From Bacillota bacterium (GTDB taxonomy: Bacteria; Bacillota; Clostridia; CAKSNL01; HGM11501): a stretch of 48,165 nt of DNA. This document shows positions 8,457 to 48,165 of the stretch, one piece after another; the first letter of the stretch is position 1, and each line of letters starts with the position of its first letter. The position numbers and the translations under genes were made by a program. Location of the stretch: positions 1 to 48,165 of the forward strand of contig JAUZPY010000004.1 in the NCBI GenBank assembly GCA_030705805.1, given 5' to 3'. Below the pieces are notes generated by a model. That model had not been told where the DNA came from. It searched no databases and saw nothing but the letters and a program-made list of their open reading frames with translations.

Positions 8457-9412
8457 AAAACATTATATTTGACCCCCCGACAGACCTGAAATTTACACCC
8501 GGTGATTATGTACCTTTTAAAGACAGAGAAGTATGCGAGCGTCTTCGCAAGATCAGCGGCAAGGACTTAGAAAAGCATCCTAATCCTGACTTTAACATTA
8601 AAGTTATGATGAATCCTCATCCTGTTTTGATAGCAACTTTGTTTTCAAGAATAAAGGAAGCATCGGAAAAAGGAAAGAAGATTACGCTTATACTTGGAAA
8701 TCCTGAGCCTGAAACATATATTCCTCTTTCACAGCTTATAAACTATTTTAAAGTTGACTGTAAGAACGTACATATTTTTGCAATGGACGAATGGGCAGAT
8801 GATGCTGGAAACATTGCACCCGAAACATATAAAGCAGGTTTTGCTCATTCGTTGCTTAAATACCTGGTTTTCCAGATTGATGAAAAACTTCGTATGCCTC
8901 TTGAAAACGTGCATTATCCCTCAAATAAGAATATTAAGGATTATTCTAAAATGATTACCGACTGCGGGGAAGGCGGAGCGGATATATGCAGCTCATCACC
9001 GGGCTGGACAGGACATATGGCATTTATTGACCCTGTATCGGAGTTTTTAACTGATGATATGGATGAGTATCTAAACATGGAAGCTAGAATAGTTACCCTT
9101 CATCCGTTAACTGTAGCTCAGAATTCTCTTCACGGTGTATTCGGTCAATCAGGATATATTGCCGACGTACCGCCAAAGGCAGCAACAATCGGACCTGTAG
9201 ATGTTAAAAATGCAAGAGAGCGTATTGAAGTTCATGCTCTTTTAACCAACAATACCTTCTCTTCATGGCAGAGAATGACTTCACGTCTTGTTCTTCATGG
9301 CCCTGTTAGTCCTTTAATTCCCAGTTCTATGCTGCAATTAATGAAAACTCAGGTTTATGTAAGCGAAGAAATAGCAGCGCCCTTTGATTGTTGGGAAAAA
9401 GTCGGATATTAA
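8453..9412 (+). CDS. glucosamine-6-phosphate deaminase-like protein (divergent NagB family)
   Basis: FAMDEWAD (NagB-type MDE) and SPGWTGHMAFIDP (cf. G-NGHIAFNEP); overlaps upstream CDS by 4 nt. Confidence 0.8.
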   Translation: MKNIIFDPPTDLKFTPGDYVPFKDREVCERLRKISGKDLEKHPNPDFNIKVMMNPHPVLIATLFSRIKEASEKGKKITLILGNPEPETYIPLSQLINYFKVDCKNVHIFAMDEWADDAGNIAPETYKAGFAHSLLKYLVFQIDEKLRMPLENVHYPSNKNIKDYSKMITDCGEGGADICSSSPGWTGHMAFIDPVSEFLTDDMDEYLNMEARIVTLHPLTVAQNSLHGVFGQSGYIADVPPKAATIGPVDVKNARERIEVHALLTNNTFSSWQRMTSRLVLHGPVSPLIPSSMLQLMKTQVYVSEEIAAPFDCWEKVGY

Positions 9413-46476: not shown

Positions 46477-46492
46477 AAAAGAGGTGTCTTTG

Positions 46493-47581
46493 ATGCAGAA
46501 AAATACCAATGAAACTGAAAATAAAGCATTAATAGCAATGAGCGGTGGCGTTGATTCCAGTGTCGCAGCTTATCTTACGAAAAATAAAGGATATGACTGT
46601 ATAGGTGCAACTATGCGCCTTTTTCAAAATGAAGATGCAGGAATTCCGAGAGAATCCACGTGCTGCTCTCTTGATGATGTTGAAGATGCCAGAAGTGTAT
46701 GCCATAAACTTGGTATACCATATTATGTATTCAATTTTACAGAAGACTTTAGTACCCATGTAATCGACCGGTTTGTTTCTGCTTATGAACTTGGTACTAC
46801 TCCTAACCCGTGTATTGATTGCAACAGATTTCTCAAGTTCGAAAAATTATTTAGGAGAGCTGAAGAAATTGAATGTGAATATGTTGTGACAGGTCATTAT
46901 TCGAGAATTGAAAAATCAGGGGAGCGGTATCTTTTAAAGAAAGCGGTAGATTTAAATAAAGACCAAAGCTATGTTCTATATTCCATGACGCAGGAGCAGC
47001 TTGCACACACCATGTTTCCTTTAGGGGAACTATGCAAGTCGGAAACAAGAGCCATTGCCGAAGCTAATGGATTTATTAATGCAAAAAAACATGAAAGTCA
47101 GGACATTTGTTTTGTGCCTGACGGAGATTATGCTAAAATTATTGAACAACATACAGGAAAAAAATACCCTGAAGGTAATTTTGTCACTCGTGACGGGGAA
47201 ATACTCGGTAAACATAAAGGAATAATTAGGTATACCATAGGGCAAAGAAAAGGTCTTGGGCTTGCTCTTAAAGAGCCTTTATATGTATGTGAAAAACGTC
47301 TGGAAACAAACGAAGTTGTACTGGGACGAAATGAAGAGCTATTTTCAAAGGAACTTGATGCTAATGATTTTAACTGGATTGCGGTAGATGGGCTAAATGA
47401 TGCTATTCATGTTAAGGCTAAAATACGTTATCGTCAGGAAGAGCAGCCGGCAACGGTATTCCCAACAGGAGAAAACAGTGTGCATATTGAATTTGATGCA
47501 CCCCAAAGAGCCATTGCAAAAGGTCAGGCTGTGGTGCTGTATGACGGGGATGTAGTTGTTGGCGGCGGCACAATATGCTGA
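46493..47581 (+). CDS. mnmA: tRNA-specific 2-thiouridylase
   Basis: ALIAMSGGVDSSVAAYLTKNKGYDCIGATMRLF; TPNPCIDCNRFLKF; ESQDICFVPDGDY. Confidence 0.96.
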   Translation: MQKNTNETENKALIAMSGGVDSSVAAYLTKNKGYDCIGATMRLFQNEDAGIPRESTCCSLDDVEDARSVCHKLGIPYYVFNFTEDFSTHVIDRFVSAYELGTTPNPCIDCNRFLKFEKLFRRAEEIECEYVVTGHYSRIEKSGERYLLKKAVDLNKDQSYVLYSMTQEQLAHTMFPLGELCKSETRAIAEANGFINAKKHESQDICFVPDGDYAKIIEQHTGKKYPEGNFVTRDGEILGKHKGIIRYTIGQRKGLGLALKEPLYVCEKRLETNEVVLGRNEELFSKELDANDFNWIAVDGLNDAIHVKAKIRYRQEEQPATVFPTGENSVHIEFDAPQRAIAKGQAVVLYDGDVVVGGGTIC

Positions 47582-47742
47582 TTTAGATAAAAAGGCTTGG
47601 TTAAATAAAATGGCTAATATGTTTTTAGACCATATCGGAATAAATGCCTGAAACTGCTTATTGAATTCAGGGAAATTTAAAAACAGCCTTTTTTAAACGT
47701 GAACTTGTCAGCAAAAAATAGAACATAAAAAAACGCAATAAT

Positions 47743-47784
47743 AAAAATGCCCTTGTTCGGCTTGAGCCGAACAAGGGCATTTTT
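47743..47784. terminator. bidirectional terminator between mnmA and the CRISPR locus
   Basis: AAAAATGCCCTTGTTCGGCTTGAGCCGAACAAGGGCATTTTT. Confidence 0.85.
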
Positions 47785-47836
47785 GTCAATATAAGAAGTG
47801 AGTTCCGTGTTCAGAATAACAATTATAAAATAATTA

Positions 47837-47865
47837 TTGATTAGATTGTCGAAATATAGTATAAT
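47837..47865 (+). promoter_or_regulatory. candidate cas9 promoter
   Basis: TTGATT-N17-TATAAT on plus strand. Confidence 0.55.
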
Positions 47866-47880
47866 CAGTGTAAGCAAAAG

Positions 47881-47993
47881 AAAAAAACCTGCATAAGCAG
47901 GTTTTGTACCACACACTGTGGAGTCCTTACGGACGATTTGAATAAATTTTTATTTGAACTTATAGTGTAATCTTATATGGTAGTAATAAGATT
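47881..47993 (-). ncRNA. candidate tracrRNA (type II CRISPR-Cas), divergent from cas9
   Basis: minus strand: AATCTTATTACTACCATATAAGATTACACTATAAGTTCAAATAAAAATTTATTCAAATCGTCCGTAAGGACTCCACAGTGTGTGGTACAAAACCTGCTTATGCAGGTTTTTTT; anti-repeat, AATAAAAATTTATT nexus-like stem, GTCCGTAAGGAC and CCACAGTGTGTGG hairpins, rho-independent terminator. Confidence 0.8.
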
Positions 47994-47999
47994 AACTGT

Positions 48000-48028
48000 A
48001 ATATATCATATTACAAAGGAGTTGTCAA
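48000..48028 (-). promoter_or_regulatory. tracrRNA promoter
   Basis: minus strand TTGACA-N17-TATATT; predicted start about 47993. Confidence 0.75.
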
Positions 48029-48030
48029 GA

Positions 48031-48165
48031 ATGAAAAAAGAATTTGGCGAGTATTATTTAGGACTGGACATAGGTACTGATTCAATCGGATGGGCAGTAA
48101 CTGATAAAGAGTACAATTTAAAAAGATTTAACGGTAATGACATGTGGGGAATCCATCTGTTTAAT
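48031..48165 (+). CDS. cas9: Cas9 endonuclease, N-terminal 45 residues (truncated by window end)
   Basis: MKKEFGEYYLGLDIGTDSIGWAVTDKEYNLKRFNGNDMWGIHLFN; RuvC-I GLDIGT.S.GWAV motif; RBS AAAGGAG; no stop before window end. Confidence 0.92.
   Translation, partial: MKKEFGEYYLGLDIGTDSIGWAVTDKEYNLKRFNGNDMWGIHLFN

What the first reader, a model, noticed from the sequence alone, without database searches (positions are those of the whole stretch)
47881..48165. Type II CRISPR-Cas locus begins at the right edge: cas9 start with a divergent candidate tracrRNA
The last 45 codons read as a Cas9 RuvC-I segment (YYLGLDIGTDSIGWAVTD...DMWGIHLF). The N-terminal style is that of the Treponema denticola/Filifactor group of Cas9 proteins. 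Upstream on the minus strand is a 113-nt transcript unit with a consensus promoter, an anti-repeat, a nexus-like stem, two short hairpins and an intrinsic terminator. The plus-strand complement of the anti-repeat (TTTGAACTTATAGTGTAATCTTATATGGTAGTAA) looks like a type II repeat of the GTTTGA...GTGTAAT...ATATGGTAGT style. No array or cas9 remainder is visible because the window ends.
Basis: partly seen in the sequence, partly recalled or inferred. Interest (0 to 1): 0.8.

Follow-up and report, generated by a model that had tools for sequence, protein, structure and literature searches.

The report
Type II-A tracrRNA beside truncated cas9
The end of this contig carries the start of an ordinary Cas9 immune gene and, facing away from it, the gene for the small helper RNA that Cas9 needs; relatives confirm both, and show that this RNA usually begins with a small conserved hairpin that I did not find described in the papers I could search.

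Summary
Confirmed, and mostly ordinary. The contig ends at 48165, after codon 45 of a cas9 gene starting at 48031. Upstream, on the minus strand, is a tracrRNA of about 113 nt (47993 to 47881) with promoter, anti-repeat, nexus-like stem, one further hairpin and terminator. A model built from 13 relatives, window excluded, finds it at E=2.8e-23. Of 76 cas9 loci from elsewhere, 67 match the model, 63 of them upstream of cas9 on the opposite strand. In all 49 relatives where both could be read, the CRISPR repeat pairs with the locus's own anti-repeat. The two relatives whose genes I read are subtype II-A (csn2). The rest of the window's locus is missing from its assembly, so its repeat, spacers and csn2 are inferred. 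The hairpin is well supported; its function is inferred.

The parts
48031..48165 (+). cas9, first 45 codons (RuvC-I); cut off by the end of the contig
   Evidence: TIGR01865 E=2.7e-12; PDB Cas9; 73% identical over residues 1-44 to a 1346-aa Cas9 in L054
48000..48028 (-). promoter of the tracrRNA (TTGACA-17-TATATT, TG before the -10)
   Evidence: a promoter-like site upstream of the tracrRNA was found in 80 of 83 distinct loci
47881..47993 (-). tracrRNA gene (5' end predicted from the promoter, 3' end at the terminator's T run)
   Evidence: R1 model match 47881-47986, E=2.8e-23, window not in the model
47952..47990 (-). anti-repeat; pairs with the repeats of relatives
47968..47994 (-). 5'-terminal hairpin TAATCTTAT-TACTACCAT-ATAAGATTA; its 3' arm is the distal anti-repeat
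47923..47934 (-). nexus-like stem-loop GTCC-GTAA-GGAC
   Evidence: fold; a stem of varying sequence at the same place in relatives
47909..47921 (-). hairpin CCACA-GTG-TGTGG
   Evidence: CACAGTGTGTG recurs in several relatives
47884..47905 (-). intrinsic terminator stem of the tracrRNA, followed by a T run

Best explanation
This is the cas9 end of a type II-A CRISPR-Cas locus: cas9 on the + strand, and the tracrRNA gene divergent from it, its predicted start about 37 bp upstream of the cas9 start codon. The tracrRNA is transcribed from its own promoter. Its anti-repeat pairs with the repeats of pre-crRNA: a lower stem on TTCAAAT, a bulge, and a long upper stem. RNase III would cut the duplex and Cas9 would use the dual RNA, as in Streptococcus pyogenes. 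The primary transcript starts with a hairpin, formed by its first 8 or so bases and the distal anti-repeat. I infer that this cap protects the free tracrRNA and is opened when the longer repeat pairing forms. Shown here: the parts, their conservation, the repeat pairing in relatives and the hairpin's covariation. Inferred: transcription, processing, activity, the hairpin's role, and the window's own downstream genes and array.
For: Cas9 N-terminus. A tracrRNA model that excludes the window matches it at E=2.8e-23. 67 of 76 cas9 loci from a wide genome collection match the model, 63 of them upstream of cas9 on the opposite strand. In 49 of 49 relatives with readable array and anti-repeat, the repeat pairs with its own anti-repeat (-20.6 to -48.9 kcal/mol) and the array is on the cas9 strand, mostly about 6 kb downstream of the cas9 start. 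The same repeats pair with the window's anti-repeat at up to -38.6 kcal/mol, where shuffled repeats average about -10. L052 has type II cas1, cas2 and csn2 after cas9, and L054 csn2, by profile. Hairpin: mean score 15.0 against 11.1 (sd 0.26) when 5' parts are swapped between loci; its 5' arm starts at the predicted +1 (median offset 0, n=40).
Against: No cas9 remainder, cas1 or repeat of the expected pattern is found elsewhere in the 94%-complete assembly, so the system could be truncated or degenerate in this organism. The subtype rests on relatives. No RNA data.
Confidence: 0.95

Rival explanations
1. The locus is a degenerate remnant: tracrRNA and cas9 start remain, but cas9 is broken beyond the contig end or the operon is gone.
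For: The contig ends inside cas9 and nothing else of the locus is in the assembly. Several relatives show short cas9 frames.
Against: The tracrRNA has every element intact and is the best match to a model that excluded it; the reading frame, ribosome site and RuvC-I residues are intact. Assembly breaks at CRISPR loci of draft genomes are common (general knowledge).
Confidence: 0.15
2. The inverted repeat at the tracrRNA 5' end acts as DNA, an operator for a regulator of the divergent cas9 and tracrRNA promoters, rather than as an RNA hairpin.
For: It lies between the two divergent genes at the predicted +1 of the tracrRNA, a classical operator position.
Against: 35 distinct 3' arms and loops from 4 to 13 nt among the loci; one regulator's operator would keep its sequence and spacing. 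The 3' arm doubles as anti-repeat.
Confidence: 0.15
3. The 5' hairpin is a reduced form of the tracr-L natural single guide: the 5' arm mimics the repeat, so that the tracrRNA guides Cas9 to its own promoter.
For: The 5' arm resembles the repeat segment that pairs with the same anti-repeat bases; only 4% of 5'-arm bases pair with the repeat, against 95% of 3'-arm bases. tracr-L self-guides are known in S. pyogenes (PMC11417352).
Against: The hairpin begins at the predicted first base, leaving no guide sequence 5' of it, and the lower stem is not mimicked. No second minus-strand promoter is seen in 47600-48165, though one further inside cas9 could not be seen.
Confidence: 0.1
4. Chance: a terminator hairpin and an AT-rich stretch that resemble a tracrRNA.
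For: The promoter scan alone finds no more sites than shuffles do (3 against 3.2).
Against: Model match E=2.8e-23 with the window excluded and the pairing of repeats with anti-repeats in 49 of 49 relatives.
Confidence: 0.01

Closest known systems
[quoted passage not shown] pyogenes as the studied type; near relatives here L052, a Tissierellia MAG, and L054, a Clostridia MAG)
   Same: cas9 N-terminus, divergent tracrRNA upstream of cas9, anti-repeat with lower stem, bulge and upper stem, nexus-like stem, terminator; the relatives have cas1-cas2-csn2 and 36-bp repeats.
   Different: In the window only 45 codons of cas9 are held; array and csn2 are not seen. The tracrRNA carries a 5'-terminal hairpin on the anti-repeat.
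tracr-L, the long tracrRNA of S. pyogenes that represses the cas promoter (PMC11417352)
   Same: A 5' part of the tracrRNA resembles the repeat and can fold onto the anti-repeat (for tracr-L, partly from general knowledge).
   Different: Here the predicted transcript is short, the hairpin starts at its first base, and no guide sequence precedes it.

Membership tests
Type II CRISPR-Cas | cas9 | tested here: met
   First 45 aa match TIGR01865 from position 1, E=2.7e-12; below the full-length cut-off because only 45 aa are present
Type II CRISPR-Cas | HNH domain in cas9 | not testable with these tools
   Lies beyond the contig end; not found elsewhere in the assembly
Type II CRISPR-Cas | tracrRNA with anti-repeat, nexus and terminator next to cas9 | tested here: met
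Type II CRISPR-Cas | repeat array complementary to the tracrRNA | tested here: inconclusive
   No array in the assembly for the pattern used; repeats of 49 relatives pair with their own anti-repeats, and many also with the window's
Subtype II-A | csn2 with cas1 and cas2 | not testable with these tools
   Beyond the contig end; no cas1 elsewhere in the assembly; met in relative L052, csn2 also in L054
tracr-L natural single guide | guide sequence 5' of the repeat mimic, matching the cas promoter | tested here: not met
   The predicted transcript starts at the hairpin; a promoter further inside cas9 could not be seen

The most novel reading that the evidence does not exclude
A large group of type II-A tracrRNAs begins with a conserved, covarying 5'-terminal hairpin whose 3' arm is the distal anti-repeat, so that free tracrRNA is capped and its anti-repeat partly masked until a crRNA repeat displaces the short 5' arm: a built-in stability and assembly switch.
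Probability: 0.45. Interest if true: 0.5.

Novelty: new member of a known kind. Interest (0 to 1): 0.3.

Why it matters
The locus itself adds one more type II-A system with a readable tracrRNA to the Bacillota set. The 5'-terminal hairpin would matter more: it would mean that in these systems free tracrRNA is structured at exactly the stretch that must pair with crRNA, which bears on how dual RNAs assemble, how tracrRNA survives without crRNA, and how guide RNAs derived from these orthologues should be trimmed.

Tried and rejected
Looking for the rest of the locus in the same assembly by HNH profile, Cas1 profile, a degenerate repeat pattern and a full-length relative Cas9: nothing beyond the 45 codons. 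Genus, family and order searches: too few genomes. Rfam: no family at its gathering score. Plasmids: none. Viral contigs: only four weak relatives. A structure-aware covariance model: RNAalifold gave no consensus pairs on the MAFFT alignment, probably because the stems vary in length, so the model used sequence only. My first anti-repeat search wrongly skipped perfect anti-repeats, and a first table read some repeats in the wrong orientation; both were redone. A guess that the hairpin is only a by-product of complementarity to the repeat was rejected, since its 5' arm lies outside that complementarity.

Full report
Setting. The window is the whole of contig C87 of a draft genome of 2.0 Mb in 152 contigs, 94% complete; the contig ends at 48165. 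Upstream of the region lies a gene of 365 aa that reads as a tRNA-thiouridylase (46484-47581; named from its sequence, not searched), then a strong inverted repeat (47743-47784) that looks like its terminator.

cas9. The open frame from 48031 gives MKKEFGEYYLGLDIGTDSIGWAVTDKEYNLKRFNGNDMWGIHLFN. It matches the Cas9 family from its first position and, among solved structures, Cas9 chains. The 80 relatives kept from the genome collection are 56-76% identical over the stretch, mostly in Bacillota, with some metagenome bins named otherwise. 45 residues do not support a placement inside the Cas9 tree.

tracrRNA. On the minus strand a promoter (48028-48000), a predicted start near 47993 and a terminator (47905-47884) delimit about 113 nt. 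Reading upstream of cas9 in 18 related loci from the same class and in one phage-collection record showed the same divergent arrangement, with the core GTTCAAATAAAAATTTATTCAAATCG or the variant GTGCAAATAAGG. A sequence model built from 13 of them, without the window, gives the window at 79.7 bits, E=2.8e-23, the best score of the set. Applied to the window and 76 loci from a wide genome collection it matches 68 sources, the window included; of the 67 others, 63 are upstream of cas9 on the opposite strand and 4 on the same strand.

Pairing with repeats. In 49 loci where an array repeat and an anti-repeat could both be read, every repeat pairs with its own locus's anti-repeat, in the usual form: GTTTGA on TCAAAT, a bulge, then a long upper stem; all arrays read on the cas9 strand, mostly about 6 kb downstream of the cas9 start. 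Against the window's anti-repeat the repeats of L054 and L116 reach -38.1 and -38.6 kcal/mol; in an earlier set, shuffled repeats averaged about -10, with a lowest value of -24.6. In L052 the genes after cas9 are cas1, cas2 and csn2; in L054 csn2 is confirmed by profile (frames). So the type is II-A in the relatives; in the window this is inference.

What is missing. The same assembly holds no further cas9, no cas1 and no repeat of the expected pattern. With about 6% of the genome missing and a break exactly here, a lost contig is the simplest reading, but a truncated locus is not excluded.

A 5'-terminal hairpin. The window's transcript begins AATCTTAT-TACTACCAT-ATAAGATT. Over 83 distinct loci, the best hairpin in the stretch before the core scores 15.0 on average, against 11.1 (sd 0.26, maximum 12.0 in 40 trials) when 5' parts are swapped between loci, and 11.1 when they are shuffled. 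In the 72 loci with the GTTCAAA core, 41 have a perfect Watson-Crick stem of at least 6 pairs, against 9-10 in swaps (maximum 18.5); in 44 loci less than 65% alike, 25 against 5.7 (maximum 12 in 300). There are 35 distinct 3' arms among the 41, so the pairing is kept while the sequence changes. In the 26 loci with such a stem and a readable repeat, only 4% of the 5'-arm bases pair with the locus's repeat, against 95% of the 3'-arm bases, so complementarity to the repeat does not explain the 5' arm. The 5' arm starts at the promoter-predicted first base: median offset 0, 33 of 40 within -4 to +6. Folding the stretch from the predicted start to the core, 54 loci of this group have a mean energy of -5.6 against -1.5 kcal/mol shuffled and -2.1 swapped, and 94% have a paired base among the first three, against 20% in shuffles; 12 dissimilar loci give -5.8, -2.1, -2.5 and 92% against 26%. 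None of the 11 loci with the GTGCAAA core has such a stem of 6 pairs.

Caveats on the hairpin. Related loci can inflate the counts; the less redundant subsets reduce this but do not remove it. Transcript starts are predicted, not mapped. In the last test 18 of the 72 loci, and all 11 of the GTGCAAA group, dropped out because no promoter was found or the start lay less than 24 or more than 50 nt before the core. Whether other II-A tracrRNAs have the hairpin was not tested, and the paper searches cover open-licence papers only, so 'not described' is weak.

Mechanism. Established for S. pyogenes: tracrRNA pairs with pre-crRNA repeats, RNase III processes the duplex and Cas9 uses it (PMC3936727). 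By homology the window's RNA does the same. For the hairpin I favour a cap that stabilises free tracrRNA and is displaced by the longer, more stable repeat pairing (-22 to -49 kcal/mol against -1 to -9 for the hairpin). A tracr-L type self-guide (PMC11417352) is less likely, since no guide sequence precedes the hairpin.

Verdict. The locus is a new member of a known kind; the conserved 5' hairpin is the one point that a specialist might not expect.

Noticed in passing
47743-47784: Strong inverted repeat between the thiouridylase gene and the tracrRNA; looks like a bidirectional terminator (it matches its own complement). A weak Rfam match to SpF22 sRNA below threshold is probably the hairpin alone.
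   Followed up: partly
L083, L092, L104, L119, L120: cas9 frames of 149-385 aa beside tracrRNA matches; may be frameshifted or degenerate cas9 genes, or assembly errors.
   Followed up: no
L069 171-266, L076 119-218, L102 9701-9799: In three Peptostreptococcaceae loci the tracrRNA match lies upstream of cas9 but on the same strand as cas9, and in L057 downstream (9293-9374), instead of divergent.
   Followed up: no
L080 9864-9930; L087 5469-5547: Cas9 with tracrRNA match in bins named as archaea (Methanomassiliicoccales; Candidatus Methanomicula): horizontal transfer or mis-binning.
   Followed up: no
L029 (MT835488.1 50271-64392): A record of the phage collection ('UNVERIFIED: Bacteriophage sp.', human faeces) carries cas9, a divergent tracrRNA of the GTGCAAA kind and an array at its end; could be a bacterial contig in the phage collection.
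   Followed up: partly
L029, L032, L039, L042-L044, L071, L088, L123, L124, L127: A second tracrRNA group with core GTGCAAATAAGG and a shorter stretch before it, without the 5' hairpin.
   Followed up: partly
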